NCBI RefSeq assembly: GCF_028689785.1
Contig: NZ_JAQVCN010000059.1
Span: 1 to 32,229 of the forward strand
DNA: 32,229 nt
Source of the DNA: Zoogloea sp.
GTDB taxonomy: Bacteria > Pseudomonadota > Gammaproteobacteria > Burkholderiales > Rhodocyclaceae
Reading direction: 5' to 3'
The position numbers and the translations under genes were made by a program. Below the pieces are notes generated by a model. It did not search any database and had not been told where the DNA came from. It saw only the letters and a list, made by a program, of their open reading frames with translations. Below are positions 1 through 17,846 of the stretch, one piece after another (positions within the stretch are counted from its first letter, which is position 1; every line of letters begins with the position of its first letter).

Positions 1-1623
1 GCCCTGACCGCCCTCGCCTCCGCCCTCCTCGCAGCCTGTGGCGGCGGTGGTGGGGGTGGCGGTGGTGGCGCCAGCAAGTCATCCCTTTCCGGCACGGTCG
101 CCGACGGCTACCTGAAAGGGGCGACGGTGTGTCTGGACATCAACACCAATGGGGCCTGCGACAGCAGTGAGCCGAGCACCATCACCGCCGACGGTGGCAA
201 GTACACCCTGAGTGATCTCAATGCCGGCGACGAAAGCAAGTACCCGGTTCTGGTCCTCGTTCCGGCCTCCGCCGTGGACAGCGACAATCCGACCGGCACC
301 GTCGGCAAGCCCTACTTCCTGTCCGCTCCCGCCGGCAAGGGTGGCTTCGTGAGCCCGCTCACCACCCTGGTCCAGCAGAAGGTTGCGGCCGGCGCGAAGG
401 TGGACAGCGCCGAGAGCGCGGTCAAGAGCCTCCTCGGGATCACCGACACCACGGTCAGCCTGTTCAACGACTACATCGCCGGCAAGGGCAGTGCCACCCA
501 AGCCGACGCCACCGCCGCGGGTCGCTATGCCCGCGCCCATGAAGCCGCCAAAGTGGTGGCCAAATCCCTGCAGTCCGGCTACGACGACCTGAAGTCCGAC
601 AGCAATGCCAAGGCCGTGCAGAAGGTGCTGCTGGCCCAGGCGGAAGACGCCCTCACGGTGCAGAAGGCCACCTCGGCCGACACCGCCAACCCCACCTTCA
701 CCACTGCCGGCGTTGTCGCCGTCGACAGCCCCAACACGCTGAAGAAGATCGTCGCCTTCGAAAAGGGCAGCAGCACCGCCGCCACCCAGGCGGTGAACAT
801 CGAGTTCGGCGTCACCGCCGCTGGTCAGGCGGTCTCCTGCGGCGTTCCCCTAACCGGTCTGGGCACCAAGGCCACCGCCGGCCAGGTGAAGGACCTGCGC
901 TTCTACGTCAGCAACGTGATGCTCATCGACGCCCAGGGCAACACGGTTCCCGTAACCCTCGACGCCAATGCCAACCAGGCCAGGGACGTGGCCCTGATCG
1001 ACTTCGAAGACGCCACCGGCAAGTGCCCCACCAGCACCGGCAGCGCCGCCACCTACACCACCCTCACCGGCAAGGTTCCCCCGGGCACCTACGTAGGCGC
1101 AACCCTGAGCGTGGGCGTTCCGGTCAAGTCTGCCGATGCCGACAAGGTCTCCCTGAACCACAGCAGCACCACGGCCACCGCCACCCCGGAGATCCTGACC
1201 AGCTCGGCGATGGCCTGGTCCTGGCAGGCTGGCCGCAAGTTCATGAAGATCGAGTACGTGCCCGACACCCCCATCACCCGCCCGGACGGCACCACCACGA
1301 CCACCTGGAACGTGCACCTGGGTTCCACCGGCTGCAAGGGCGACCCCACCAAGGGCGTCGTGACGGCCTGCACCAACCCCAACCGCATGGACTTCTCCTT
1401 CGCGGCCTTCAACCCCGGCACCCAGAAGATCGTTCTCGACCTGGCCGAGCTGTTCAGGAATTCCGACCTGAGCCATGAAGGCGGTGGCGCCGCGGGCTGC
1501 ATGTCCGGCACCACCGATCCGGAATGCCCGGGCATCTTCCAGGCCCTGCAGATCGATCTGGCCACCGGCCTGCCCATCAACGGCGGCGGTGCCCAGAAGG
1601 TCTTCGCCGTGAAGGCCAAGTAA
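1..1623 (+). CDS. MbnP-family copper-binding lipoprotein with N-terminal fused module (5' end outside window)
   Basis: The open frame runs from base 1, so the true start lies upstream. It opens with the end of a lipoprotein signal peptide (lipobox LLAAC, Cys at base 37) and a run of ten Gly. In partial numbering, residues 27-110 form a beta-rich module with a calcium-loop-like stretch (DINTNGACDSSEP). Residues from about 250 to 540 match the MbnP / 'metallo-mystery pair four-Cys' family: several Cys (SCGVPL, GCKGDP, ACTNPN, GCMSG, ECPGI) and the conserved AMAWSWQAGRKF segment with W406 and W408. In characterised MbnP a Trp is oxidised to kynurenine by partner MbnH and helps bind copper. Two MbnH-like genes follow 23 bases downstream, which supports the call. 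The N-terminal extension makes it much longer than a bare MbnP domain. Copper binding is inferred from the family. Confidence 0.85.
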   Translation, partial: ALTALASALLAACGGGGGGGGGGASKSSLSGTVADGYLKGATVCLDINTNGACDSSEPSTITADGGKYTLSDLNAGDESKYPVLVLVPASAVDSDNPTGTVGKPYFLSAPAGKGGFVSPLTTLVQQKVAAGAKVDSAESAVKSLLGITDTTVSLFNDYIAGKGSATQADATAAGRYARAHEAAKVVAKSLQSGYDDLKSDSNAKAVQKVLLAQAEDALTVQKATSADTANPTFTTAGVVAVDSPNTLKKIVAFEKGSSTAATQAVNIEFGVTAAGQAVSCGVPLTGLGTKATAGQVKDLRFYVSNVMLIDAQGNTVPVTLDANANQARDVALIDFEDATGKCPTSTGSAATYTTLTGKVPPGTYVGATLSVGVPVKSADADKVSLNHSSTTATATPEILTSSAMAWSWQAGRKFMKIEYVPDTPITRPDGTTTTTWNVHLGSTGCKGDPTKGVVTACTNPNRMDFSFAAFNPGTQKIVLDLAELFRNSDLSHEGGGAAGCMSGTTDPECPGIFQALQIDLATGLPINGGGAQKVFAVKAK

Positions 1624-1646
1624 GCCGACCGGAAAGACAGCCCACG

Positions 1647-2822
<1,176 letters not shown>

Positions 2823-2829
2823 GCGCCCC

Positions 2830-3955
<1,126 letters not shown>

Positions 3956-3975
<20 letters not shown>

Positions 3976-5164
3976 GCCTGCCGCCCTGCTGCTGCCCGCC
4001 CTCCTCCTGGCCCTCGCGGGCCAGGCTGCCGCCCATGAGACCACGGCCCCTGCAGAAGACCGCCTGAGCCTCTCCGGCGGCTTCGGGCTGATGTCCCTGC
4101 ATGCGGACGAGCCCTACCCCGCCCCGCGCCTACCCGGCGTGCTCGAAGCCGGCAGCCCCCGGGCCGACGAACGTCGCGACGGCCTCGACTACGCCGAGAT
4201 CGCCCTGCGCGCCCGCTTCAGCGATGCCTTGCGCGGCTTCCTGAAAGTGGCCCACCACGGCGGCCCCGACAGCAGCAACCACACCGAGGAAGCCTGGCTC
4301 GAAGGGCGCATGGCGCCAGTCCACGATCACCTGGCCAGCCTGCGGGTCGGCCGCCAGCTGCTGCCCCTGGGCCTGCTCAACCCCATCCACACCCATGCCC
4401 GGGACTTCGGCATCTCGCCCCTGGCCATGCGCGGCGCGGTCAACGACTACTGGCGCGCCGACGGTGTGCGCAGCGACTGGAATCACCCGGCCGGCTGGTC
4501 GCTGGGCGTAGGTGCCTGGCGCAACCAGAGCTTCCCCGGTGCCGATGCCGGCGGCTTCAAGCTGCTAACCGCCCGGGCCGGCTGGAAGAAGGAAGCCCTG
4601 CAGCTGGAGGCCGGCTACGCCAATGTCAATGCCGACGGCCGGGCCCTGGTGACCACCGGCAACGTGGGCCATACCCACAGCGTACCCAGCTGCACCCGCA
4701 TCACCACCGACCGGGTGTGCTTCGACGGCACCGCCCAGCTGCTCTCCCTGGCGGCCCGCTGGGCTCCCGCCGACAGCCCCCTGTGGGTCGGTGTCGAGTG
4801 GTGGTACAAACGTGAGGAGGGGCGCCTCGACAGCATCAACGGCGCCCCCGCCTACACCGGCAAACTCAACGGCGGCTGGGTGGATGTGGGCTGGCAGCTC
4901 GCCCCCGGCTGGGAAGTCATCGGCCGTGCCGAACGTCTGGTGGGCCGCCACAAGCTGGCCGGCGTCAACGCCGGCCTCGTCGCCACCCAGGCCGGCCTCA
5001 CCGACGCCGACAAGAACCCCACAAGCCTCGGCGCAGTGATCAAATGGCGCCCCCTCGACGGCCACCGGATCACCGCCGAATGGCACCGGGAGCGGGACGG
5101 CACGACGAACAACAACGTCTACCTGCTGCGCTACCAGTTCACCTTTGCCAAAGGGCTGCTGTAG
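3956..5164 (+). CDS. Putative outer-membrane beta-barrel protein of the MbnP/MbnH locus
   Basis: A 402-residue exported protein. I choose the ATG at 3956 over the in-frame ATG at 3929 because it directly begins a good signal peptide (LLLPALLLALAGQAAA, cleavage before HE). It overlaps the 3' end of the second MbnH gene by 20 bases. The mature part alternates polar and aromatic/hydrophobic residues, has many Gly/Trp/Tyr-rich strands, and ends in a strand-like RYQFTF segment, as in porin-like barrels. It is His-rich early (VAHHGG, NPIHTHARDF), and one CTRITTDRVC stretch could form a disulfide loop. I do not recognise a named family. The context suggests a role in passage or capture of a metal or ligand across the outer membrane, but that is inference. 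Confidence 0.7.
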
Positions 5165-5244
5165 GGCTCCGAAGCGCGGCCTGCACCTTGCCGGTCGCAG
5201 CGCGGGCAGCGCAGCTGGCTTGGACTGAGCGTGGGCAACGCAAA

Positions 5245-5293
5245 ATTGGTATGGTCAATGTTCAAAAAGTGGATGGGATAAACAGGCCACTTT
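5245..5293 (+). promoter_or_regulatory. Candidate operator region upstream of the B6 cluster
   Basis: The 194-base gap before the transporter gene holds a perfect 7-bp inverted repeat, AAAGTGG (5266-5272) and CCACTTT (5287-5293), separated by 14 bases. Just upstream is ATTGGTATGGTCAATG (5245-5260). TGGTAT is the complement of ATACCA, the half-site of the MocR-type regulator GabR, and MocR-type PdxR proteins control many B6 genes. A looser TGGATGGGATAA follows about 23 bases later. No regulator gene lies in the window, so the link to PdxR is a guess. No convincing -35/-10 pair is visible. Confidence 0.3.
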
Positions 5294-5358: not shown

Positions 5359-6612
5359 ATGTCGTCCGCATCCCCCCCCTCATCCGTACGCCTGAATGAC
5401 CTCACCCATCCCGTCGTCGCTGGCCTGATTTCGGTCATCGTCAATTACGGCGGCACTTTCATTCTGGTGTTCCAGGCCGCCAAAGTAGCCGGCCTCAGCC
5501 CGGAGCTGACGGCCTCGTGGGTTTGGTCGATTTCGATCGGCGTTGGGGTGACGGGGCTCATGCTGAGCTGGATCGCCCGCGAACCGATCATCACGGCCTG
5601 GTCCACACCGGCCGCGGCATTTCTCGTCACGGCGTTGGCGACCACACCTTATGCAGAGGCAGTCGGCGCCTACCTGATCTCCGGAGCAGCCTTCGTCCTG
5701 CTCGGCCTGTCGGGCTACTTTGAGAAGGTCATCCGCCTGATTCCGCCCGGTGTGGCGGCCGGCCTTCTGGCGGGCATCCTGTTGCAGTTCGGGATTGGCG
5801 CCTTCGGCGGCATGAGCGTCGATCCCCTGCTGGCAGGCCTGCTGATCGTCGCCTACGTCGTACTCAAACGCTTCACGGCACGCTATGCGGTGGTCGGCAT
5901 TCTGGCGCTGGGACTGGCTTTCCTGCTCGTCCAGGACCGAGTCGATCTGTCCGGCTTGACACTGGAACTCGCGGCGCCGGTCTTCACCATGCCAGCGTTC
6001 TCCCTCAACGCCTTGCTGAGCATGGCTTTGCCACTGTTCCTCATCACCCTGACCGGCCAATACATGCCCGGCATGCTGGTGCTGCGCAATGACGGGTTCA
6101 AGACCAGTGCCAATCCCATCCTGACGGTCACCGGGCTGGGCTCGCTGCTGATGGCGCCATTCGGCTCGCACGCCTTCAACGTCGCCGCGATCACGGCGGC
6201 TATCTGCACGGGTCGCGAGGCCCATGAAGTGCCCTCCAAGCGCTGGATTGCCGGCATTGCCGCGGGTGTGTTCTACATCCTCGTCGGCGTGTTCGGCGTG
6301 ACCCTGGCCGCCGTCTTCATGGCATTCCCGACCACGTTCATCACCACGCTGGCGGGTCTCGCGTTGCTGGGCACGATTGGCGGCAGCCTGGCCAGCGCCA
6401 TGGCCGACGCCAAGACCCGGGAAGCCTCACTGATCACCTTTCTGGCTGCCGCAGCCAACATCAAGATGCTGGGGATTGGCGGTGCGTTCTGGGGCCTGCT
6501 GATCGGCCTGATGGCCTACGTCGTGCTGAATGCTCAATGGTCTCGCCCCAAAGCACAGATCAAGGCGGCACCCACGGGCGTACCGGCAACGAGCACGGGA
6601 GCGGCCAACTGA
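5359..6612 (+). CDS. BenE-family (benzoate/H+ symporter-like) transporter, candidate vitamin B6 importer
   Basis: A 417-residue inner-membrane protein with about 11-12 hydrophobic segments, matching the BenE benzoate:proton symporter family. Family-like blocks include AWSTPAAAFL, LIPPGVAAGLLAGILL and the GSHAFNVAAITAAICTG segment. No benzoate-degradation gene is nearby. Instead it heads an overlapping operon of PLP-related genes: its TGA shares one base with the ATG of the YggS gene. Import of an aromatic B6 vitamer such as pyridoxal or pyridoxine is therefore a reasonable inference from context, not from sequence. The start is uncertain: AGGAG (5341-5345) is 13 bases from this ATG, and an out-of-frame ATG at 5348 would make a 15-residue peptide overlapping the start. 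Confidence 0.85.
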   Translation: MSSASPPSSVRLNDLTHPVVAGLISVIVNYGGTFILVFQAAKVAGLSPELTASWVWSISIGVGVTGLMLSWIAREPIITAWSTPAAAFLVTALATTPYAEAVGAYLISGAAFVLLGLSGYFEKVIRLIPPGVAAGLLAGILLQFGIGAFGGMSVDPLLAGLLIVAYVVLKRFTARYAVVGILALGLAFLLVQDRVDLSGLTLELAAPVFTMPAFSLNALLSMALPLFLITLTGQYMPGMLVLRNDGFKTSANPILTVTGLGSLLMAPFGSHAFNVAAITAAICTGREAHEVPSKRWIAGIAAGVFYILVGVFGVTLAAVFMAFPTTFITTLAGLALLGTIGGSLASAMADAKTREASLITFLAAAANIKMLGIGGAFWGLLIGLMAYVVLNAQWSRPKAQIKAAPTGVPATSTGAAN

Positions 6613-7430
6613 TGCGAACCTCAGCCGTCACACAAACCAGCCATGACCAGCATGGCCGATATCCACAGGCGGTCACGGTCGCGGATTTCCGCCGCAACCT
6701 GACGAATGTGCGCGAACGTATCGACACAGCTTGCCGCCGTGCCGGCCGCGATCCGGCAAGCGTGCGTCTGCTGCCGGTCAGCAAGACCTTTGATGAGGCA
6801 CATATTCGTCTGGCCTACGCGGCCGGTTGCCGTCAACTCGGCGAGAACAAGGTCCAGGAGGCCTATCGCAAGTGGACCGCCATGGCAGACCTGACAGATC
6901 TGCAGTGGTCGGTCATCGGCCACCTTCAGACCAACAAGGTCAAGCTGGTGGCGGCCTTTGCTACGGAGTTCCAGGCGCTCGACAGCCTGCGTGTTGCCGA
7001 AGCCCTGGATCGCCGTTTGCAGATCGAGGGGCGCTCGCTGGACGTTTTCGTTCAGATCAATACCTCTGGCGAGGCCAGCAAATACGGCCTGCAGCCGCAA
7101 GAGGTGCTGCCCTTCGTCAAAGAACTGCCGGCATTCAATGCCTTGCGTGTGCGAGGGTTGATGACACTGGCGCTGTTTTCCAGCGAGGCCGAACGGGTGC
7201 GGCAGTGTTTCGTCCTGCTGCGAAACCTGCGCGACCAGCTACGCGAAAGCGCGCCCGTCGGCATTGGGCTGGAAGAACTGTCCATGGGCATGTCCGGAGA
7301 TTTCGAGATCGCCATCGAAGAAGGCGCCACCGTCGTGCGCGTCGGCCAGGCCATTTTTGGTGCCCGAAGCACCCCCGACAGCCATTACTGGCCTGCGCTG
7401 GCTTCAACAACCGAGGCCTTGTCATCATGA
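6612..7430 (+). CDS. yggS: YggS/PROSC family PLP-homeostasis protein (PLPBP)
   Basis: A 272-residue cytosolic PLP-binding protein of the YggS/PLPBP family, which carries PLP and keeps free PLP and amino/keto acid pools balanced; it has no known catalytic reaction. PLP-lysine motif LLPVSKTF (Lys58), the GENKVQEAYRK block, IGHLQTNK, and C-terminal MGMSGDFEIAIEEGATVVRVGQAIFG all fit. The ATG at 6612 overlaps the transporter stop (TGATG); the frame stays open upstream into the transporter gene, but that is shadow. About 25 residues precede the usual family start, which is slightly long. It overlaps the next gene as ATGA. Placement between a transporter and a pyridoxal kinase supports a dedicated B6 operon; another genomic yggS copy may exist. 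Confidence 0.93.
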   Translation: MRTSAVTQTSHDQHGRYPQAVTVADFRRNLTNVRERIDTACRRAGRDPASVRLLPVSKTFDEAHIRLAYAAGCRQLGENKVQEAYRKWTAMADLTDLQWSVIGHLQTNKVKLVAAFATEFQALDSLRVAEALDRRLQIEGRSLDVFVQINTSGEASKYGLQPQEVLPFVKELPAFNALRVRGLMTLALFSSEAERVRQCFVLLRNLRDQLRESAPVGIGLEELSMGMSGDFEIAIEEGATVVRVGQAIFGARSTPDSHYWPALASTTEALSS

Positions 7431-8146
7431 AGACCGCCATCGCCATCCATCACGTCTGCTTTGAAGACCTGGGTACGCTGGAACCCTTGCTCGAAGCTCG
7501 GGGATACACCGTCCGCTATGTGGATGCCACGGTCGATGACCTGCGCAGGCTTGATGTCGTCACTCCAGATCTGCTGGTCGTGCTGGGCGGCCCTATCGGC
7601 GCCTTCGACGAGGCGCTTTACCCGTTCATCGCTGACGAGCTGATCCTGCTGCGCCAGCGGCTGCAGAGCCGGAGAGCGCTACTGGGCATTTGTCTGGGAG
7701 CACAGCTGACAGCCCGTGCCTTGGGCGCTCATGTCGGCTCGATGGGCACCAAGGAAATCGGCTATGCCCCACTGAGCCTGACCGTGGAAGGCAAGGCTTC
7801 GCCGCTGGGAGCACTCGGAGATGTGCCCGTGCTGCACTGGCACGGCAACCAGTTTGACATTCCAGCGGGCGCGGTGCGCCTTGCCGCTACGGAGGTCTGC
7901 CCCAACCAGGCCTTTGCCTTCGAAAATCATGTCCTCGGGCTCCAATTCCATCTGGAAGCAGATGCCCGGCGGATCGAACGCTGGCTGGTCGGTCATCACT
8001 GCGAGCTCGCCCAATCGGGGATCGACCTGTGCGAACTACGTAGCCGGGCCCATGCACTGCAGGCCCCGTTGTCGGCAGCGGCTTGTGCGGTTTTCTCCCG
8101 CTGGCTCGATGCGCTTGAGCCAGACCTCCAGCCGGGCCGGCCATGA
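7427..8146 (+). CDS. Class I glutamine amidotransferase-like protein of the B6 cluster
   Basis: A 239-residue cytosolic protein of the class I GATase fold, as in stand-alone GMP-synthase-like amidotransferases. The catalytic triad is intact: nucleophile Cys89 in GICLGAQL, His175 and Glu177 in LQFHLEAD. The oxyanion-strand GGP motif (VVLGGPIGAF) is also present. Such proteins release ammonia from glutamine or hydrolyse gamma-glutamyl bonds. It is not PdxT-like in length or motifs, and no PdxS is present. It overlaps both neighbours by ATGA, so it should be made in step with YggS and the kinase. No synthase partner that would take up ammonia is evident, so the substrate is unknown. Confidence 0.85.
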   Translation: MKTAIAIHHVCFEDLGTLEPLLEARGYTVRYVDATVDDLRRLDVVTPDLLVVLGGPIGAFDEALYPFIADELILLRQRLQSRRALLGICLGAQLTARALGAHVGSMGTKEIGYAPLSLTVEGKASPLGALGDVPVLHWHGNQFDIPAGAVRLAATEVCPNQAFAFENHVLGLQFHLEADARRIERWLVGHHCELAQSGIDLCELRSRAHALQAPLSAAACAVFSRWLDALEPDLQPGRP

Positions 8147-9081
8147 GAGCGGCATCATTTTCCGAGATCAGGCAGCCGCTCAAGATCGACGTGGTTTCAG
8201 TGCAGTCGCAGGTGGTGTATGGGCGCGTTGGGAACAATGCCGCCGTCCCCACGCTGGAGGCCCTTGGCCTGACCGTGGCCGCCGTGCCTACCGTGGTACT
8301 GAGCAATATCCCGAGTTATCCGACGATCCACGGGGGGGCACTCCCTGTTGAATGGTTCAGCGGCTACTTGCAGGATCTCGAGGCACGTGGTGCCTTGGAT
8401 GCACTGCGCGCAGTTCAAGTGGGATACCTCGGAAACGCCGACCAGGCATTAGTGCTGGGCACCTGGATCAAGGCCCTGCTGACCGACCGGCCTCACCTGC
8501 GCATTGTCATCGACCCGGTGATCGGCGATCAGGAGCATGGCATCTACAGCGCCGAGGGGATCGCCGACGTCTATCGGGGCGGGCTCACCGCACTGGCAAA
8601 CGGCCTGACGCCAAACGCCTTTGAACTCGCCTGCCTGACCGGCATGCCAGTAGACGACCTGAATGGCGTTGTGTCTGCAGCGAGGTCGTTGCTTGCCGGA
8701 CGTATCGAATGGGTCGCGGTGACCAGCGCGGCCCCGGATGCCTGGACGCCCGATGAAATGTGGATCGTCGTGGTAACGGAACGACACACGCATCTCATCA
8801 AGCATCCACGTATTGCTGTTGCACTGGCGGGTACAGGCGACTTGTTCAGTGCCTGCATGACAGGGCACTGGCTGAACGGAATGGCACTGGAAGCGGCCGC
8901 GGCAATGGCGTGTGCGCGCGTTCTCCGCGCCTTGCGTATCACCGAATTGGCACAGGCCAAGGAGCTTGTACTCCCACGACGGGCTTTCGAGCCAGAACCA
9001 GAGCAGATTTTCATCCACGACATCACGGCGGAATTCGGACACCTGACGTGCGCCTTCGCTGAGCCCAAGGAAACACCATGA
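8143..9081 (+). CDS. pdxY: Pyridoxal kinase (PdxY/PdxK family)
   Basis: A 312-residue cytosolic ribokinase-fold enzyme that phosphorylates pyridoxal (and related vitamers) with ATP to make PLP. Recognised from the N-terminal VVSVQSQVVYGRVGNNAA block, the central IDPVIGD motif, NAFELACLTG, and the catalytic anion-hole motif GTGD (Asp233) followed by LFSACMTG. The length is somewhat above the usual 285 residues because of about 14 extra N-terminal residues; the start is fixed by the ATGA overlap with the previous gene. It ends in an ATGA overlap with the aminotransferase. No pdxH oxidase is present in the window, so the operon seems suited to pyridoxal salvage. PdxY versus PdxK specificity cannot be settled by reading. 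Confidence 0.92.
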   Translation: MRAASFSEIRQPLKIDVVSVQSQVVYGRVGNNAAVPTLEALGLTVAAVPTVVLSNIPSYPTIHGGALPVEWFSGYLQDLEARGALDALRAVQVGYLGNADQALVLGTWIKALLTDRPHLRIVIDPVIGDQEHGIYSAEGIADVYRGGLTALANGLTPNAFELACLTGMPVDDLNGVVSAARSLLAGRIEWVAVTSAAPDAWTPDEMWIVVVTERHTHLIKHPRIAVALAGTGDLFSACMTGHWLNGMALEAAAAMACARVLRALRITELAQAKELVLPRRAFEPEPEQIFIHDITAEFGHLTCAFAEPKETP

Positions 9082-10256
9082 CTCATCCCTCCTACTTGAT
9101 GCGGGCCTATGCGCGCCAACCCGTTTCCTTCACCCGGGGCTGCGGCGCACGCCTGTGGGACCATCGCGACATCGAATATCTGGATGCCATTGCCGGCATT
9201 GCCGTGACCAGCCTCGGGCACGCCAACGTAGAAATCGCCCACGTGATCGCCAAGCAGGCACGAACGCTGCTGCACACCTCCAACGTGTTTAGCATTGACT
9301 GGCAGGAGCGACTGGGCGAGCGTCTATGCACGCTGACGGGGATGGAAAAGGCGTTCTTCTGCAACTCCGGCGCGGAAGCGAACGAAGCCGCCTTGAAGCT
9401 GGCACGGCTGTACGGTCATCACAAGAAAGTGGCTCAACCGCAAATTGTGGTGATGGAGAACGCCTTCCATGGTCGCACCATCGCCACACTCACTGCGACC
9501 GACAACCCGGCGAAGCAGCAGGGCTTCGAGCCCTTGCTGCCGGGCTTCCTGCGTGTGCCCTTCAACGATATCGAAGCGGTACGCCTGATGGCCGAGCAGT
9601 CGTCCGACATCGTGGCAGTGCTGATCGAACCGGTGCAGGGCGAAGGTGGCATTCGCGTAGCCGATGCGGCGTACCTGCAGGCCTTGCGCAGGCTATGTGA
9701 TCAGCAGGGGTGGCTACTCATGCTGGATGAAATCCAGTGCGGCATGGGCCGCACCGGGGCGTGGTTCGCCCATCAGCACGCCGGCATCATCCCCGATGTC
9801 ATGACGGTGGCCAAAGCACTCGGCAATGGCTTTCCCATCGGTGCCTGCCTGGCACGCGGTGCCGTGGCCGACCTGCTGTCACCGGGTCAACACGGGACGA
9901 CCTTCGGTGGCAATCCCTTGGCCTGTCGTGTTGGTTGCACCGTACTCGACATCATGACGCGGGACGACCTGCCCAGACGAGCCGCGGCCCTCGGGGGGCG
10001 CCTCCTTTCCGGATTGCGTGAGGCACTTGCCGGGCACCCCGATGTAGTCATGATCCGTGGCCATGGCCTCATGGTGGGAATCGAGCTGAATCGGGACTGC
10101 AAGGAACTGGTCGGCCGCGCATTGATTGAGCAGCGCCTGCTGATCACGGTGACCCGGAACTCCACCATCCGGCTGCTGCCCGCCCTGATCTGCGACGACG
10201 CGCAGATCGACGACATCGTCACGCGGCTTGCGGCCCTCCTGTCGCCGGAAACGTGA
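9078..10256 (+). CDS. Class III PLP-dependent aminotransferase (ArgD/acetylornithine type)
   Basis: A 392-residue cytosolic fold-type I aminotransferase. Class III features: FFCNSGAEANEAALKLAR phosphate-binding region, NAFHGRTIATL, LIEPVQGEGG, the MLDEIQCGMGRTG block with the PLP-pyridine Asp, and the Schiff-base Lys246 in VAKALGNGFPIGA. The length and motifs are those of acetylornithine/succinyldiaminopimelate aminotransferases. No arginine genes are near; instead it overlaps the pyridoxal kinase by ATGA. It may be a second, specialised copy acting on another omega-amino substrate, or simply a PLP user co-regulated with B6 supply. Followed by a 160-base gap before glyA. Confidence 0.88.
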   Translation: MTHPSYLMRAYARQPVSFTRGCGARLWDHRDIEYLDAIAGIAVTSLGHANVEIAHVIAKQARTLLHTSNVFSIDWQERLGERLCTLTGMEKAFFCNSGAEANEAALKLARLYGHHKKVAQPQIVVMENAFHGRTIATLTATDNPAKQQGFEPLLPGFLRVPFNDIEAVRLMAEQSSDIVAVLIEPVQGEGGIRVADAAYLQALRRLCDQQGWLLMLDEIQCGMGRTGAWFAHQHAGIIPDVMTVAKALGNGFPIGACLARGAVADLLSPGQHGTTFGGNPLACRVGCTVLDIMTRDDLPRRAAALGGRLLSGLREALAGHPDVVMIRGHGLMVGIELNRDCKELVGRALIEQRLLITVTRNSTIRLLPALICDDAQIDDIVTRLAALLSPET

Positions 10257-10258
10257 AC

Positions 10259-10289
10259 CTGTCCGGGCCCGGCTGCAATGACCGGGCAG
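10259..10289 (+). other. Small hairpin after the aminotransferase gene
   Basis: CTGTCCGG (10259-10266) pairs with CCGGGCAG (10282-10289): eight pairs including one G-U, with a 15-base loop, three bases after the stop codon. There is no following T run, so it is not a clear terminator. It may be an RNA processing or partial attenuation element between the overlapping block and glyA, or chance in GC-rich DNA. Confidence 0.25.
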
Positions 10290-10416
10290 ATCGAGCCGAC
10301 AACATGAAACCCCGGTCGCTCCGCCGCTCCCCGGATCCATCGATAGCTGGAATCGGATGTGCCCGAGCAGACCTCCAGCCCGAAACCCAAGAACGCCAAA
10401 TCACAGGAATACTGCC

Positions 10417-11682
10417 ATGTACGACCCATCCCTGACTCTCGCCCAGTTCGACGCCGAGCTGGACCAGGCCATTCAAACCGAAGAACGGCGCCAGGAGGAC
10501 CACGTCGAGCTGATCGCCTCGGAGAACTACGCCAGCCCCTTGGTGATGGCGGTTCAGAATTCGGTGTTCACCAACAAATACGCCGAAGGCTATCCCGACA
10601 AGCGCTACTACAGTGGCTGCGAAAACGTGGATGTCGCCGAGAGACTGGCGATCGAGCGGGCGAAGCAATTGTTCGACTGCGACTACGCCAACGTACAACC
10701 TCACGCGGGAGCCCAGGCGAACGCCGCGGTGTACCTGGCCCTGACCGATCCAGGCGACACCGTGATGGGGATGAACCTGGCACAGGGGGGGCACCTTACC
10801 CACGGCAATCCTTCCAACTTCTCCGGCCGGCACTACAAGATCGTGCCCTATGGCCTGAACCCGGAAACAGGTCTCATCGACTATGACGAGATGGAGCGCA
10901 TCGCGCAGGAAACCCGGCCCAAGATGCTGATCGGTGGTTTCTCCGCGTACTCGCGGTACAAGGACTGGGCACGCATGCGGGCCATCGCCGACAAAGTCGG
11001 GGCGATCTTCTGGGTGGACATGGCGCACGTGGCCGGCCTGGTCGCCGCAGGCGAGTACCCGAATCCGCTGCCCCACGCCCATGTGGTGACCAGCACCACC
11101 CACAAGACGCTGCGCGGGCCCCGCGGCGGCCTCATCCTGGCCAAGGGGCAGAGTGAGGACTTCTACAAGAAGCTCAACTCCGCTGTGTTTCCCGGCATCC
11201 AGGGCGGCCCGTTGATGCACGTCATCGCCGCAAAGGCGGTGGCTTTCAAGGAAGCCCTGTCTCCGGCATTCAGGGCATACCAGCAGCAGGTCGTGGCCAA
11301 CGCCCGCGCCATGGCTGCTGTGCTTCAACGGCGCGGCTACAAAATCGTGTCCGGGGGCACCGACAACCACCTGATGCTGATCGACCTGTCCGACAAACCC
11401 TACACAGGCAAGGACGCCGATGCGGCACTCAGCAATGCCTATATGACGGCAAACAAGAACTCGGTTCCCAACGACCCCCGCTCACCTTTCGTGACCTCCG
11501 GCGTGCGCATCGGCACCCCCGCAGTGACCACGCGTGGCTTCGGAGTCCCCGAGTGCGAGGAGCTTGCCGGGTACTTGGCCGATGTGCTCGATGGGCTGGA
11601 AAACGGCGCTTGCGATGAAGTCACGCAGCAGGTGCGCGACAAGATCGTGGCGCTCTGCCGCCGCTTCCCGGTGTACGAGTAA
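10417..11682 (+). CDS. glyA: Serine hydroxymethyltransferase
   Basis: A 421-residue cytosolic PLP enzyme that converts serine and tetrahydrofolate to glycine and 5,10-methylene-THF. Diagnostic blocks: [24 protein letters not shown], the PLP-lysine motif [13 protein letters not shown] (Lys230), [12 protein letters not shown] and the C-terminal [16 protein letters not shown]. The ATG at 10417 matches the usual family N terminus and follows an AGGAAT ribosome site; the 20-residue upstream extension is not family-like. A 160-base gap separates it from the preceding gene, so it may have its own promoter though none is obvious. Being next to B6 genes suggests this could be a second glyA under B6 control; whether another copy exists cannot be seen here. 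Confidence 0.95.
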
Positions 11683-11708
11683 AGCGGAGCCTACTCCTCG
11701 GAAACTCA

Positions 11709-11745
11709 ATGCTCACCACAAGGCCCCAAGGCCGATGTGGTGCAT
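11709..11745. terminator. Hairpin between convergent glyA and hybrid kinase genes
   Basis: ATGC and ACCACA (11709-11720, with a two-base TC bulge) pair with TGTGGTGCAT (11736-11745), and an inner GGCC-CCAA-GGCC stem lies inside. It sits 27 bases after the glyA stop and 51 bases beyond the kinase stop, where two transcription units converge. No T run follows on either strand, so intrinsic termination is not certain. Confidence 0.35.
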
Positions 11746-11795
11746 TCGCGCTGGTGACGGAGCAGGGCCTATGAAATCACGCCACCGCTCGTTGC

Positions 11796-14700
11796 TCACG
11801 CCCCCGGCAGCCTGATTCCGTCCACCAGCCGCGCAGCTTCTTCAAATTCGAAGTCGTCGATGAGGCGACCGATGCGCTGTGCCAGGTCGCGGGACTGGGC
11901 GCAGATGGCAGGCTTCAAGGTGTTGAAGGTGGTGACGGCGTCCATGTCACCGGTATCGAGGAGGCGCTGCAGCTTGGCCACCTGCCCGGCGTCCAGGAGC
12001 ATCGGGTTGGTGGGCCGGTCGGGCTCGACGGCTTCGTCGTCGGCAAGGGTCCGCAGGTGGGCGAAGAGGGTTTCCATGCCGGCCTGCAGGGCGCGGCGGC
12101 GGGCCTCGGTGACGGTGGCCTGGGCGGCATGGCGGAAATCGTGTTCGAGGCCGCTGGCCAGCCCGGCAAGATCAAGCAGCCCCAGCGTGGAGAACACCCC
12201 CTTGAGCGAATGGGCGATGCGGGCAGCAGTGGCCGTGTCGCCGGCAAGGCTGGCGTCGCGCAGGCGGGTCATGTCGAGGGCGTGAGCCTCGGGCATGTGG
12301 ACGAGCATGGAGAGAAGCTGAGGGGCCTGCCCGCGGAGGCTGCGCAGACCGTCATCGAGGCTGAGCCCGGGGATGCCGGCCAGGCGCTCCAGCAGGGCCG
12401 GACTGGCCGAGGGCGTAGCGCGGGGCGCCGACGGCACGGCCTGGCCCGGTACCGCCTTGCCGCTGGCCGGAAGCCATTTGAGAAGGGTGGCATAGAGCAG
12501 GTCGGGGTCGACGGGCTTGGCGATGTGGTCGTCGAGGCCCCCGGCCAGGCAACGACCGCGGTCTTCTTCAAAGGCGTTGGCGGTCATGGCGAGGATCGGC
12601 AGCTTTTCGCGGCCAGGCAAGGCGCGGATCAGGGCGGTGGCCGCGAGGCCGTCCATCTCGGGCATCTGGATGTCCATCAGGATCAACGCGTAGGCGTTGT
12701 GGGTGGCCAGCTCGACGGCCTCTCGGCCGTTGTTGGCCACATCGATCTCCAAGCCCACGTGGCGCAGCAGCTCTAGGGTCACCTCCTGATTGAGGAGGTT
12801 GTCTTCGGCCAGCAGGAGCCGGGTTCCGCGGTGCAGGGCCAGAGCGTCTTCGAGTTCGATGGAGGGCGGCACCTCGGTGCTCACGAGGGCATCACCCAGC
12901 ACGTTTTCGAGGGCCGTGAGCAGGGCCATGGGCGTGACCGGTTTGGGGAGGAAGGCACTGAAGCCCGCGGCCCGAAAACGCTCCTCCGGCGGATCGCCGG
13001 CCGCGCTGATCATGACCATGATGGGCGGCTTGTGCTTGAAGAGCTCGCGAATGCGGATACCGGTCTCGATGCCGTCCATGCCGGGCATGGCCCAGTCCAC
13101 GAGGATGATCTGGTAGGGGTCGCCCTCGGCATCGGCGTCGGTGGCGGCGGTAATGGCCGCTGCGCCACTTTGGCAGGTGTCGGCCCGGGCGCCGAGGCTG
13201 CCGAGCATGTCGGCGATGGCTTCGCAGGCGTCGGCAATGTCGTCCACGATCAGCACCCGGGTGCCGTTTCTGAGCTGATCGGGGATGCTGCGGATGGGGA
13301 AATCCGGCACCTGTTCGAAGGGCGCTTCTATCCAGAAGGTGCTGCCCTCGCCCAGGGTGGAGCTGACGCCGATGCGCCCACCCATCAGCTGCACGAGCTT
13401 TTTGGAAATCGCCAGGCCGAGCCCGGTCCCGCCGTACTTGCGGGTGGTGGAGATGTCGGCCTGCTCGAAGGCGTTGAACAGGCGCTCGCGCTGGGCCTCG
13501 CTCAGGCCGATGCCGGTGTCGCTGACCTGGAAGCGAACCCACAGGGTGAGGCCCTCCCGCGCCACCACCGATGCACTCAACAGGATGCGCCCGTGCTCGG
13601 TGAACTTGATGGCGTTGCCGGTGAAATTGAGCAGAATCTGGCCGAGACGCAGCCCGTCGCCGTGAAGCGCCGCGGGCAGGTCGTGGATGTCGACGATGAA
13701 CTCCAGCCCCTTGGCTTCAGCCTTGTCGCCACACAGGTTGCAGACGTTGCGGATGACCCGGTCCACCTCGAAGTTGACGGGCTCCATGGAAATCTTGCCG
13801 GCCTCGATCTTGGAGAAATCGAGGATGTCGTTGATGACGCCGAGCAGGTGGTGCGCGGCACCGGCCACCTTGTCGATCTGCTGGATCTGACCGGGGGTGC
13901 TGAGGCCACGCCGTAGGATGTAGCTGAGGCCGATGATGGCGTTCATCGGAGTGCGGATTTCATGGCTCATGTTGGCCAGGAAGGCGCTCTTGGAACGGTT
14001 GGCCGCCTCGGCGGCGTCCCGGGCGGCAGCCAGCTCAGCGGTGCGTTCGGCGACGATGTCTTCCAGGTGGTCCTGGTAGCGCAGCAGGTTGCGCTCGTTC
14101 TCCTTCTGCACCGAGATGTCGTTGATGACCTCGGCCAGATAGTCACGGCCCTTCAGATTGATGTGGGCCGCGGTCAACCAGATGTCCACCACCGATCCGT
14201 CCTTGCGGCGGTGCTGGTGCTCAAAGGCGACCCGCCCCGACTGCAGGATATCGCGGATGTGGGCGTCCACGTCGTCGCGGGTGTAAACCGCCTGGACGTC
14301 GTACAGCGTGATCGCGGCGAACTCTTCGCGGGTGTAGCCGAGCACCCCGCAGGCGGCGTCGTTGAACTCCACGTAGCGCTTGGTTTCCAGGTCGATCAGC
14401 ACCACGCCGCTGGCGGCCATTTCGACAATCGAGGTGTAGATTTTTTCGCGCTCGTGCAGTGCCTCGGAGGTTTCATGCAGGTCGTGCACGTCCTGCACGA
14501 TGCCGAAGGCCTTGGCTGGAGCCCCGCTGGCGTCCACCTCGATCTCGGCGCGCTGGCGGACCCAGCGCTCGGCGCCGTCGATGAAGATGCGGTGCTCGAT
14601 GTCGAAGGGGCGCTCCGGCCCGGCGGCCCGCCACATCTCCTGGAAGTAGGCACGGTCGTCGGGATGCACCAGGGCCAGCAGCCCTTCCAGACCCACTGTC

Positions 14701-16052
14701 TGACCGGACGGCAGCTGGAGCAGGCGGCAGGCTTCCTCGGACCACATCACCAGGTCGAAGCCGAAGCTGTAGCTCCAGCTACCGATGCGCGCCAGTAACT
14801 GGGTGCGACGCAGGGCAGCTTCGCTCTCGCGCAGGGTCTCCTGGGAGAAATGCAGGGGGGTGATGTCACGCCCGACCCCGAGCACGCCGATCAGCGTGCC
14901 CGAGTCATCACGGATAGGTGTCTTGATGGTCTCGACCAGCTCCCGGTGGCCGTCGCCGGCAAAGCTGACCCACTCCTCGACCACCTGGATCTGCCCGGCC
15001 TCCAGCGCCCGAAGCTCATGGGCCTGGGACACGGTCTCCGTGTCGGGTGAGTTGAGATCGCGGTCCAGACGCCCCATCAGCTCGGCTTCGCTCAGGCCGG
15101 TTAGGCGCTCGAAGCGGGCATTGCACTGGATGTAGCGGCCTTCCACATCCTTCAGCCAGACCAAGTCCGGCATGCCACGGATGATGTTCTTGAGTCGCTC
15201 CCGCTGAGCGGCGAGGGCCTGCTGGCTCTCCTGCCGCTCGACCAAGGCGGAATGGAAGCGCAGCACCGACTGGGCAAGATCGCGCAGCAGGCTGTTTCCC
15301 GAGGCGGCCAGACGCTGCACCCCGTGCAGGTCCGGGCCGGGCGTGCCGACGTCACCGAGGCGGGTCAGCGCGTCGCTGACCTGGGATATCTGCCGCGTCA
15401 TCTGACGTGACAGGAAGAACCAGATCAAGGCCACCAGGATGAACCCGGCAAGCTGGATCAGCAGCGAGGTCCGGATGTGCGATGCCAGCTTGACCTGCTG
15501 TTCGTCCACATGGGCTACGGTCTGGCCGGCGAGGTCGCCGGAAATGGCCTGGATGTGCTCGGCAAAGGCGATGTAGCGCTCGGCGGCCTGGTTGATGTAG
15601 GCGCTCGCCACTTTCACATCCACCGCAACACTGTCGGTGGCGGTAATGATGGCGCTGCGGTAGCTGAGGAAGTCTTCGAGGGCACCTTCCACGTTGCCTG
15701 CCGCTGCCGGGTAGGCGGCCAGTTGGGCGCGAAGGGTTTCCAGCACGCGCTGCTGGGCGGCCAGACTGTCGATGACCCGGGTGTGGATGAAGTAGGCCTG
15801 GGCTTCGTCGATACGGCCGGCGCGGGCGTCGTCGAGGGTCTGCGCCACCAGGCGCTGGAGCTTGAGCATGTCGTTGCTGACGCGGCTGGCCTGCAGCATG
15901 GCGTTCACGTCAGCCTTCTGGGTCTGATTGGCCTTGTGCTGGGTATCCAGCAGGGACACCTGGATGGCCACGTTGCTCAGGCCGGCCACCAGGGTGGCCA
16001 GCACCACCGGAACAAAGAGGACCAGGAAGAAGATGCGTCCGTGCGCCGACAT
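11796..16052 (-). CDS. Membrane hybrid sensor histidine kinase: 3 PAS, HisKA, HATPase, 2 receivers, HPt
   Basis: A 1418-residue inner-membrane hybrid kinase. Order seen: TM1 (about 7-28), periplasmic sensory region of about 165 residues, TM2 (194-214), HAMP-like linker, PAS domains at about 285-400, 410-527 and 534-657, HisKA with His697 in MSHEIRTP, HATPase with DTGIGL and [10 protein letters not shown], receiver 1 (Asp986 in [11 protein letters not shown]), receiver 2 (Asp1127 in [11 protein letters not shown]), and HPt with His1281 in ARIAHSLKG. All phosphorelay residues are present. Such BarA/TorS-like proteins run an internal His-Asp-His relay to a separate regulator. It starts 3 bases after the phosphatase gene and is last in an operon led by an HD-GYP response regulator, a possible relay target. 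The periplasmic ligand is unknown. Confidence 0.93.
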
Positions 16053-16055
16053 GAT

Positions 16056-16688
16056 CTAGCGCAGCAGTTCAGGCCACATGTCGGGGCGGATGCTGCCCAC
16101 GTACTCAAACCCGCTGCCCTGGGGAATGAAGATCACCACCGTTCCCTCCTGCTTGGGGAAATAGCCCATGGTGTCGGCCAGGTTGGGCGCGTGGGCCATG
16201 ATGAAACGGTTTTTGCCCGGCGCGACAGGTGCGGACATCAGGCGGCGGGTGGCCTCGACGATCGGCTTCTTCTGCTCGCTGGTCTGGTTGGTGGACGAGA
16301 AGAGTTCATCCACCACGATCACCCGGGCGTCGCGCCCGAACACCAGCTGCGCCGATTCCCGGGTGCGGCACATGGGGCTGACGTAGATATCGGCAATGGG
16401 TATACGCGCCTGGCGGAGGGACTTGCCGATGTCCGCCGCCATCTTGCGACCTTCGTCGTTGAGGGGGCGCTGGGTGTTGCAGTCGTCGAACTTCGGCTCA
16501 GGCTGGTCGGGGCGGGTCGGATCGGTCTTGCCGTGGCGCATGTAGATCACGAAGCCACCATCATCGAGCTTCCTGAACTGCTCACGGGTGAGCAGGCGCT
16601 CGACAAAGGGTGCAGGGGTTTGAGCCCGGGCCACCGGGAGACACACCATCAGGGCCAGCAGCAGGAAAGCGAAGACTCTCATCGTCAT
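16056..16688 (-). CDS. Exported histidine phosphatase superfamily protein
   Basis: A 210-residue branch-1 histidine phosphatase (phosphoglycerate-mutase-like fold). The RHG motif is seen in YMRHGKT (phosphoacceptor His52), an RPLNDEGRKMA block follows, and the second catalytic His166 is in MAHAPN. The N terminus (RVFAFLLLALMVCLPVARAQ) is a clear Sec signal with cleavage near ARA-QT, so the enzyme should act in the periplasm. It lies 6 bases after the HD-GYP gene and 3 bases before the hybrid kinase gene, so the three are almost surely one operon. A SixA-like action on the kinase's HPt is unlikely because HPt is cytosolic. It may instead act on a phosphorylated ligand sensed by the kinase; this is speculation. 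The start could be the ATG at 16682. Confidence 0.88.
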   Translation of the reverse strand: MTMRVFAFLLLALMVCLPVARAQTPAPFVERLLTREQFRKLDDGGFVIYMRHGKTDPTRPDQPEPKFDDCNTQRPLNDEGRKMAADIGKSLRQARIPIADIYVSPMCRTRESAQLVFGRDARVIVVDELFSSTNQTSEQKKPIVEATRRLMSAPVAPGKNRFIMAHAPNLADTMGYFPKQEGTVVIFIPQGSGFEYVGSIRPDMWPELLR

Positions 16689-16694
16689 TTTGGT

Positions 16695-17846
16695 TCAGTC
16701 CCGATAGTGCTCTGCGATGGCCAGAAATTCATCTTCCAGCTGAAGGAAGGCATCCAGCAGACGGGGGTCGAAGTGGGTGCCCCGCCCATCCACCATCAGC
16801 GCCCGCACCCGCTCGGGGGCGAAGGCCTCCTTGTAATGACGCTTGCACGAGAGGGCGTCGTAAACGTCGGCGATCGCCATGAGGCGCCCCGGCAGGGGGA
16901 TGGCGTCTCCCTTCAGCCCTTCGGGGTAGCCGGTGCCGTCCCAGCGTTCGTGATGGCAGCGCGCAATCTGCCGGGCGGTCTCCAGAAAGGCCAGCGAACG
17001 GCTTGGCACCTCCTGGGCATCGGCGCGGGTGGCCTCCCGGCTTAGCACCCGCTGAATGGCGTCGCCCAGGGCGTCGGCACCGATCTGACTGTGGGTCTTC
17101 ATGATCTCGAACTCGGCCGGTGTCAGCCGGCCAGGCTTGAGGAGGATGGCATCGGGGATGCCGACCTTGCCGATATCGTGGAGAGGCGCGGCCTTGGCGA
17201 TCAGCTCCTGGGTCAGCGGGTCGAGCTGCGAGCAGAAATCGGGGTGGCTCGCCAGGCGCTGCATCAGGGCCTCGATATAGGCCTGGGTGCGGTGCAGATG
17301 GTTGCCGGTTTCGTTGTCGCGCTTCTCGGCCAGGGCGGCAAGGGCATTCAGGCTGATCGCCTTGATCAGCTCGTTCTCGCGCATGCGCCGTTGCACCTCA
17401 TGCTCAAGGTAGACGTTGTGATTGGCCAGCACGTCACGGGCGCGCTTCAATTCGAGGTGCGTACGCACCCTCGCCTGCAGGATGGCAGCCCGGATGGGCT
17501 TGGTGACGTAATCCACGGCCCCCAGCGCCAGGCCAAACTCCTCGTCCTCGTCGGCGCTCATGGCGGTCACGAAGATCACCGGGATGTCCCGGGTGAGCAC
17601 ATCGGCGCGCAAGGCCTTGAGCACGGCATAGCCGTCCATCTCGGGCATCATCACGTCAAGGAGGATAAGGTCGGGCACCGGTTCCATCTGCACCGCCTTC
17701 AGCGCCCGCTCGCCGGAGTTCGCGACCCGGACACGAAACTCCGCGCCCAGCACCGCCGACAGGACAGTGAGGTTCTCCTTCGTGTCGTCGACGATCAGAA
17801 CGGTCTTGCGTTCGTCCCAATGGCCTGCGGCCGCCTGCTCATTCAT
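16695..17846 (-). CDS. RpfG-like response regulator: receiver plus HD-GYP c-di-GMP phosphodiesterase
   Basis: A 383-residue cytosolic protein. An N-terminal receiver (VLIVDD, phosphoacceptor Asp64 in LILLDVMMPEMDG, Lys in VTKPI) is joined by a helical linker to an HD-GYP domain (about 170-360). Metal and signature residues are intact: HDIGK at 223-227, KTHSQIG, HHERWDGTGYPEG with GYP at 306-308, and ADVYDALSCKRHYK. Family knowledge: these degrade c-di-GMP to pGpG/GMP when the receiver is phosphorylated. It is first in an operon with an exported phosphatase and a hybrid kinase that ends in HPt, so that kinase is its likely phosphodonor. The ATG at 17846 lacks a strong ribosome site but gives the normal receiver N terminus. 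Confidence 0.95.
   Translation of the reverse strand: MNEQAAAGHWDERKTVLIVDDTKENLTVLSAVLGAEFRVRVANSGERALKAVQMEPVPDLILLDVMMPEMDGYAVLKALRADVLTRDIPVIFVTAMSADEDEEFGLALGAVDYVTKPIRAAILQARVRTHLELKRARDVLANHNVYLEHEVQRRMRENELIKAISLNALAALAEKRDNETGNHLHRTQAYIEALMQRLASHPDFCSQLDPLTQELIAKAAPLHDIGKVGIPDAILLKPGRLTPAEFEIMKTHSQIGADALGDAIQRVLSREATRADAQEVPSRSLAFLETARQIARCHHERWDGTGYPEGLKGDAIPLPGRLMAIADVYDALSCKRHYKEAFAPERVRALMVDGRGTHFDPRLLDAFLQLEDEFLAIAEHYRD

What the first reader, a model, noticed from the sequence alone, without database searches (positions are those of the whole stretch)
5359..11682. Self-contained vitamin B6 uptake, salvage and use cluster with an unassigned transporter
A BenE-type transporter, YggS/PLPBP, a GATase-like protein, pyridoxal kinase and a class III aminotransferase overlap by 1-4 bases, with serine hydroxymethyltransferase next. 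Three genes use or handle PLP directly and one makes it. No benzoate genes are near. The BenE homologue is therefore a candidate importer of a B6 vitamer, a function not usually given to this family. The frames and motifs are seen; the transport substrate is inferred.
Basis: partly seen in the sequence, partly recalled or inferred. Interest (0 to 1): 0.72.

Follow-up and report, generated by a model that had tools for sequence, protein, structure and literature searches.

The report
PdxR-controlled vitamin B6 operon with BenE
A bacterial gene cluster pairs a probable vitamin B6 importer with B6 salvage genes and second copies of B6-dependent enzymes under a B6-sensing switch; the importer idea was already predicted in print, and I saw no experimental test of it.

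Summary
In detail: benE, yggS, a class I GATase, a pyridoxal kinase and a class III aminotransferase overlap by 1-4 bases (5359-10256), and glyA follows after 160 bases (10417-11682). The B6 link is real. The window BenE belongs to a distinct BenE subclade. 81 of 83 loci of that subclade carry a PdxR/MocR-type regulator close by (the two misses end under 0.9 kb upstream), 80 of them divergently upstream. Among 61 more distant BenE loci, 6 have a detected MocR, at 26-28% identity. A three-box operator lies before benE here; its only other match in this genome precedes the resident PdxR-type gene, on another contig. Corrections: (1) the 'BenE = pyridoxine transporter' idea is not new; Suvorova and Rodionov (2016) predicted it from PdxR regulons with the same gene families. 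(2) The cluster is not an auxotroph's lifeline: the genome has pdxJ, pdxA and pdxH. Its YggS, aminotransferase and SHMT are second copies, whereas its kinase is the only convincing one found in the genome. Related clusters on conjugative plasmids add trpBA. I read it as a PLP-supply / PLP-stress operon with a probable B6 importer. The transport substrate is untested.

The parts
5244..5293 (+). PdxR/MocR-type operator: AATTGG (5244-5249), AAAGTGG (5266-5272), CCACTTT (5287-5293); TGG-TGG 23 bases, TGG-CCA 17 bases
   Evidence: Same spacing in 51 of 83 subclade benE upstream regions (53 with +-1), 0 of 61 distant BenE, mononucleotide shuffles mean 0.5, max 3 for the +-1 set; one of only 2 places in the genome with up to 3 mismatches, 0 for the reversed control
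5359..6612 (+). BenE-family transporter (417 aa), member of a distinct PdxR-linked subclade; proposed B6-vitamer importer
   Evidence: PF03594/TIGR00843; subclade of 88 rows split from 61 other BenE rows with support 100; only BenE found in the genome
6612..7430 (+). YggS/PLPBP paralogue (PLP homeostasis protein), second copy
   Evidence: TIGR00044; other copy at G000:C90, 43%
7427..8146 (+). class I glutamine amidotransferase-like protein (GuaA-like, stand-alone)
   Evidence: PF00117 and NF005458 over cut-off
8143..9081 (+). pyridoxine/pyridoxal/pyridoxamine kinase; only convincing one found in the genome
   Evidence: NF006034 over cut-off; the only other match in the genome is 30% over 136 aa, E 7e-5
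9078..10256 (+). class III aminotransferase, ArgD-type paralogue
   Evidence: TIGR00707 over cut-off; nearest other copy in genome G000:C122, 56%
10304..10416 (+). apparent deletion scar: start of a trpB reading frame and the last ~60 bases of trpA remain; pKAZ5 has trpBA here
   Evidence: window aligns to pKAZ5 (L197) 8906-13951 and 15967-17303 with the trpBA stretch missing (annotation)
10417..11682 (+). serine hydroxymethyltransferase paralogue
   Evidence: PF00464; another SHMT at G000:C116, 63%

Best explanation
This is a PLP-supply / PLP-stress operon under a PdxR-type (MocR) regulator. Shown by sequence: gene order, operator, subclade-specific link of BenE to PdxR-type regulators, second copies of YggS, aminotransferase and SHMT, the only convincing pyridoxal kinase found in the genome, and pdxJ, pdxA and pdxH elsewhere. 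Inferred: when PLP is low or disturbed, the regulator encoded on contig C64 acts in trans on the operator at 5244-5293 and turns the operon on. BenE imports an unphosphorylated B6 vitamer by ion-coupled transport, the kinase traps it as the 5'-phosphate, YggS buffers or delivers PLP, and the second aminotransferase and SHMT keep amino-acid and one-carbon metabolism running. I have no firm role for the GATase-like protein.
For: Regulator near BenE in 81 of 83 subclade loci (an earlier reading by open frames alone found 69 of 80). The two misses end 537 and 863 bases upstream; 80 of the 81 are divergent and upstream; 79 of 81 are at 70% or more to my two query regulators, two at 35-36%. Distant BenE: 6 of 61. 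18 of 83 loci show only the regulator and none of the eight other families sought, so the regulator-transporter tie is the core. The own regulator is over the NCBIfam PdxR cut-off (408 vs 320). It keeps the lysine aligned to GabR K312 and lacks the residues aligned to GabR R207 and R430, as does 7pq9, which fits PLP rather than an amino acid as effector (roles recalled). Operator. No second convincing kinase in 8 of 9 genomes tested, own included, so the operon supplies the salvage step. Same gene families already grouped in PdxR regulons. BenE has 47 subclade-diagnostic positions, among them N29, G31, T33, F34, A85, F88, Y235, M236 and F273, which fits a different substrate from other BenE.
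Against: No transport, binding or expression data. The organism has pdxJ, pdxA and pdxH, so import is not essential. pdxK is in only 9 of 83 loci, so transporter and kinase usually do not travel together. Second copies of enzymes for glycine, arginine, tryptophan and serine are more than an uptake system needs. The regulator's highest NCBIfam score is for rhizopine MocR (426 bits, cut-off 650 not met), and the genome has at least five other MocR-like genes, so the C64 gene acting on this operator is not proven. The operator spacing was chosen after looking, and 30 of 83 loci lack it even with one base of play. BenE has no solved relative by sequence at E<=0.1, and my model was too poor to use (pLDDT 52). 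Suvorova and Rodionov also report BenE and GlyA in MocR regulons of unknown function.
Confidence: 0.58

Rival explanations
1. Tolerance module against PLP antagonists. The operon protects against natural or industrial compounds that trap PLP or poison PLP enzymes (hydrazines, aminooxy compounds, cycloserine, deoxypyridoxine-like antivitamins). Extra enzyme copies replace poisoned targets, YggS and the kinase restore PLP, and BenE exports the compound or imports competing vitamer.
For: YggS, aminotransferase and SHMT are second copies beside others; relatives add TrpBA (6 of 83 with TrpB) and SerC (10 of 83). The module rides on conjugative plasmids pKAZ5 and pBYT1-1 next to transfer genes. SHMT copies differ from canonical ones at 14 diagnostic positions, including Ala for the Ser aligned to E. 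coli Ser99, recalled as a PLP-phosphate contact. 36 of 37 genome handles have pdxJ, the other a PdxS homologue.
Against: No compound identified; the regulator looks like a plain PLP sensor; 18 of 83 loci show only regulator and BenE; the kinase is not a second copy.
Confidence: 0.23
2. BenE imports a different substrate, such as an amino-acid-like or aromatic compound metabolised by the aminotransferase and SHMT; the PLP genes serve that pathway.
For: SHMT and a class III aminotransferase are the commonest partners beside YggS (44 and 38 of 83); a more distant BenE at 51% (L133) also sits beside an SHMT.
Against: 18 of 83 loci have the regulator-BenE pair with neither enzyme detected; the enzyme set varies (SerC, TrpB, ArgD, GlyA) and shares only the cofactor; the regulator lacks the arginines aligned to R207 and R430 of GabR.
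Confidence: 0.15
3. Ordinary benzoate/H+ symporter that happens to lie in a B6 operon.
For: Family name and TIGR00843 score over cut-off.
Against: No benzoate gene among the scanned neighbours; distinct subclade with full support; regulator link in 81 of 83 loci.
Confidence: 0.03

Closest known systems
PdxR regulons with BenE, COG325 (YggS), ArgD, GlyA, GuaA-type amidotransferase and pdxK (Suvorova and Rodionov 2016, PMC5320631; abstract and section 11 read, passages elsewhere, supplements not read)
   Same: Same gene families, same regulator class, same proposed role of BenE as putative pyridoxine transporter
   Different: Here the regulator gene is not adjacent but on another contig, trpBA has been deleted, and three of the enzymes are shown to be second copies; the paper is a prediction without transport data in the parts I read
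PdxR-PdxKU locus of Streptococcus pyogenes (PMC11619246; listing and start of abstract only)
   Same: PdxR with a pyridoxal kinase and a predicted B6 acquisition gene
   Different: The transporter is called PdxU there (title), not BenE; no spare PLP enzymes named in what I saw
BenE family (PF03594, TIGR00843), benzoate/H+ symporters
   Same: Family membership over both curated cut-offs
   Different: Distinct subclade, 47 diagnostic positions, no benzoate genes in the scanned neighbours, PdxR-type regulator
Zur-regulated zinc-sparing paralogue clusters (recalled, not tested)
   Same: Cofactor sensor controlling an importer plus second copies of cofactor-dependent enzymes
   Different: Cofactor is PLP, not zinc; that the copies need less PLP is not shown

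Membership tests
PdxR-regulated B6 locus | PdxR/MocR-type regulator (GntR domain plus aminotransferase domain) tied to the operon | tested here: met
   Own regulator 499 aa on C64, NCBIfam PdxR 408 bits vs 320, 88.8% to the regulator adjacent to BenE in L105; in trans here, link by shared operator only
PdxR-regulated B6 locus | Regulator keeps the PLP-binding lysine and lacks the GABA-binding arginines | tested here: met
   K341 aligned to GabR K312; G231 and A460 aligned to R207 and R430; roles of these residues recalled
PdxR-regulated B6 locus | Operator upstream of the target genes | tested here: met
   Three boxes at 5244-5293, spacing 23/17 as in 51 of 83 relatives
PdxR-regulated B6 locus | Expression responds to PLP or B6 vitamers | not testable with these tools
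   Needs expression data
BenE family transporter | Match to the family profiles over curated cut-off | tested here: met
   PF03594 424.7 vs 27; TIGR00843 383.7 vs 203.4
BenE benzoate symporter (function) | Benzoate degradation genes nearby | tested here: not met
   None among the scanned window neighbours
B6 vitamer importer | Transport of a B6 vitamer | not testable with these tools
   No assay; structure model unusable
YggS/PLPBP | TIGR00044 over cut-off | tested here: met
   195.5 vs 106.25

The most novel reading that the evidence does not exclude
A transferable PLP-stress kit: PdxR-type regulator, a new B6-transporter subclade of BenE, salvage genes and spare PLP enzymes (SHMT, ArgD-type, TrpBA, SerC) moving between Proteobacteria on conjugative elements, where the spare enzymes work at low PLP or resist PLP antagonists, as Zur paralogues do for zinc.
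Probability: 0.3. Interest if true: 0.75.

Novelty: new member of a known kind. Interest (0 to 1): 0.5.

Why it matters
[quoted passage not shown] coli' (PMC10202323, passages). A well-bounded BenE subclade tied to a PdxR-type regulator in 81 of 83 loci gives a concrete, cheap candidate to assay. If the spare enzymes really work at low PLP or resist PLP antagonists, bacteria would have a transferable answer to cofactor stress, and the pressure that selects it would be worth finding.

Tried and rejected
Auxotroph lifeline: rejected, the own genome has pdxJ, pdxA and pdxH; the one handle of 37 without pdxJ (G405, Lampropedia) has a near full-length PdxS homologue slightly under the cut-off. Benzoate transport: rejected as best reading. 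Amino-acid-sensing MocR of GabR type: not favoured. Structure route: AlphaFold2 model of BenE from 38 rows had mean pLDDT 52, so no fold search was run. Sequence search of PDB with BenE: no hit at E<=0.1. Papers: BenE with MocR gave 2 papers: PMC5320631, and PMC9484086, whose passages name benE only as an up-regulated gene listed with benK and catA, with pdxR a separate engineering target. BenE with pyridoxine gave 49, 20 listed, of which only PMC5320631 looked relevant by title. BenE (prefix) with vitamin B6 and transporter gave 3,281, 20 listed. YdcO with transporter gave 8, none about transport assays by title. PdxR with vitamin B6, transporter and uptake gave 12, seen as listing only except PMC5320631. 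The ICE plus three enzyme terms gave 0. pKAZ5 gave 1 paper, on a Citrobacter strain by its title. PMC13353753 (YggS in Salmonella): passages only, no transporter named. The library lacks most subscription papers and all preprints, so a test of BenE may exist outside it.

Limits: the 80 relatives are the best 80 of 444, ranked by likeness to the window BenE, and include near copies. The 37 handles are 8 same-order genomes (own included) plus the genomes of 29 of the 80 loci, picked by me and favouring loci with a longer gene row; one genome is in twice (G267 = G422). Searches used 14, 9 and 9 of them. Several lower-identity YggS matches, the own one at C90 among them (2 TGA), hold stops inside the matched stretch, so their integrity was not checked. 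Five further SHMT rows at 51-52% were in the alignment but in neither compared group.
Full report
Observation. Searches confirm the genes and overlaps. The row is benE (5359-6612), yggS (ATG at 6612), a class I GATase-like gene (7427-8146), a pyridoxine/pyridoxal/pyridoxamine kinase (8143-9081), an ArgD-type class III aminotransferase (9078-10256) and, after 160 bases, glyA (10417-11682). Overlaps are 1, 4, 4 and 4 bases. Neighbours scanned by Pfam are an MbnP-like protein, two MauG-type peroxidases, a frame without match, and downstream a hybrid histidine kinase, signalling and other genes; none is a benzoate gene.

Organism. The window is a whole 32 kb contig (C92) of a 5.08 Mb genome in 128 contigs with a single BenE match. 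So the order is the one holding Pusillimonas and Delftia (Burkholderiales, recalled).

BenE subclade. In 399 genomes of the order, 116 have a BenE match. Eight, own included, have a BenE of the window's kind (the other seven at 68-89% identity); all other matches are at 52% or less. The genome collection gave 80 loci at 80-93%, by record title mostly beta- and gammaproteobacteria (classes recalled), plus one Pseudochelatococcus and one Cephaloticoccus. A tree of 149 rows puts the 88 subclade rows on one side of a branch with support 100 (quick method, SH-aLRT). 47 positions are at least 95% fixed in the subclade and found in at most 10% of the others.

Neighbourhood. Of 83 subclade loci, 81 have a MocR-type regulator within 6 kb; the two misses lie 537 and 863 bases from a contig end. 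In 80 of 81 it is divergent and upstream, in one (L132) downstream. 79 of the 81 are at 70% or more to one of two query regulators, two (L130, L131) at 35-36%. Of 61 distant BenE loci, 6 have a MocR detected within 6 kb, at 26-28% identity. Counts in the 83 within 7.5 kb: YggS 45, SHMT 44, aminotransferase 38, GATase 17, SerC 10, kinase 9, TrpB 6; at least one in 65, two or more in 42. In the 61 controls: SHMT 2, YggS 2, at least one in 4, none with two (short contigs counted as misses). With looser limits the 80 loci give YggS 49, SHMT 44, aminotransferase 40, GATase 20, kinase 9. 18 of the 83 have the regulator and none of the other eight families sought.

Operator and regulator in trans. 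The benE upstream regions share three boxes, TGG-TGG at 23 bases and TGG-CCA at 17. Seen first by eye, this was also the commonest of 240 spacings tried (51 of 83; the next has 13). With one base of play it is in 53 of 83, in 0 of 61 controls, and in 0.5 on average (at most 3) of mononucleotide-shuffled subclade sets. The window has it at 5244-5293. A pattern search of the whole genome with up to 3 mismatches gave two places, this one (3 mismatches, one base out of register) and G000:C64:37183-37231 (2 mismatches, first spacing 22), and none for the reversed control. No MocR-type gene was found in the window. The C64 site precedes a 499-aa regulator (L129 9686-11185, minus strand), 88.8% identical to the regulator beside BenE in L105. 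After the C64 operator comes a leader like that of relatives and an ATG, but no benE; an unrelated large gene ends about 155 bases on. The operon at C64 was therefore probably lost, and the window copy is of the pKAZ5 type. It aligns to pKAZ5 from base 5264 at 86%, and to its glyA part at 89%. That the C64 regulator acts on the window operator is inferred; the genome has 17 GntR-domain matches, five more of them MocR-like by their match to the query regulator.

Regulator type. NCBIfam scores it 408 bits for PdxR (cut-off 320, met) and 426 for rhizopine MocR (cut-off 650, not met). The best PDB hit is 7pq9, recalled as Bacillus clausii PdxR, then GabR. In the printed alignments the PLP lysine is kept and the residues at both GABA-binding arginines of GabR differ, as in 7pq9.

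Second copies and the kinase. Of the 37 genome handles (36 distinct genomes, picked as told under limits), 25 have a cluster-type SHMT (81-100% to the window's), and all 25 also have another SHMT at 75% or less. 32 have a cluster-type YggS at 72% or more; 31 of these also have a second, lower-identity match (37-58%) and one (G416) only a fragment. In 14 genomes tested, all have the cluster-type aminotransferase (72-100%), and 8, own included, also have one at 50-57%; in the other six the next distinct one is at 43% or less. The kinase is different: in 9 genomes tested, own included, only G419 has another clear match (35%, E 2e-33); the own genome's only other match is 30% over 136 aa at E 7e-5. 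So the operon seems to bring the salvage kinase itself. 36 of 37 handles have pdxJ, 35 over cut-off; own pdxA and pdxH are present; pdxH was found in 7 of 9 tested.

SHMT comparison. 44 cluster SHMT rows against 21 canonical rows give 14 positions fixed differently at 90% or more in each. One is Ala where canonical copies have Ser, aligned to Ser99 of E. coli SHMT 1dfo. Its role in holding the PLP phosphate is recalled; the effect is unknown.

Mobility. The same row, with trpBA between the aminotransferase and glyA, is on pKAZ5 (conjugative, uncultured bacterium; its GATase stretch is annotated on the other strand) beside VirD2-type relaxase, TraF and lipoprotein genes, and on pBYT1-1 (conjugative, Pseudomonas sp. 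BYT-1, activated sludge; with an extra GNAT gene) beside relaxase, S26 peptidase, EexN and TraG genes. pKAZ5 also carries a second MocR-type gene, a phosphoserine aminotransferase and a short histidinol-phosphate aminotransferase frame upstream. In plasmids, 22 of 98 records with a match have a BenE at 60% or more. The window copy has lost trpBA.

What is in print. Suvorova and Rodionov 2016 list these families in PdxR regulons and call BenE a putative pyridoxine transporter. They also note BenE and GlyA in MocR regulons of unknown function, which weakens an exclusive B6 reading. My searches, several of them capped lists, showed no assay of BenE with B6 in the titles and abstract starts listed.

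Verdict. The B6 link is well supported, the importer role is likely but untested, and it was predicted before. What my calls add is the subclade boundary, the operator with a regulator in trans, the second-copy nature of YggS, aminotransferase and SHMT beside a sole kinase, and carriage of the module on conjugative plasmids.

Noticed in passing
window 127-5164: MbnP-family protein, two MauG-type di-haem peroxidases and an open frame without Pfam match (possibly outer-membrane) stand in a row upstream of the operon: looks like an MbnP/MbnH-type set (name recalled).
   Followed up: no
L129 9686-11400 (G000:C64): PdxR-type gene with its operator and leader kept but benE gone; ends near a 2250-aa repeat-rich protein gene. 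Looks like the remnant of a second, lost operon.
   Followed up: partly
L221 and L197 (pKAZ5 196-222 kb): Second MocR-type regulator, CMD-family protein, phosphoserine aminotransferase, short histidinol-phosphate aminotransferase frame, MFS and EamA transporters, PEP-mutase-like gene next to the B6 row, beside transfer genes.
   Followed up: partly
L097: Cephaloticoccus primus (Verrucomicrobia, recalled) carries regulator-BenE at 89% with YggS: transfer across phyla is likely.
   Followed up: no
L066, L074, L075, L078, L079, L080, L083: Near-identical BenE (end branches under 0.01) in records named as gamma- and betaproteobacteria, with aminotransferase and SHMT: recent spread.
   Followed up: partly
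L133 (G138:C25): A BenE at only 51% identity still sits beside an SHMT (58%) and a weak MocR (28%), so the BenE-GlyA link may be older than the subclade.
   Followed up: no
genomes G408 (L067, Thauera sp. 28) and G419 (L107, Alcanivorax sp. S71-1-4): No pdxH match at E<=0.001 although both have pdxJ and the BenE operon: PNP oxidation may be done by another enzyme there.
   Followed up: no
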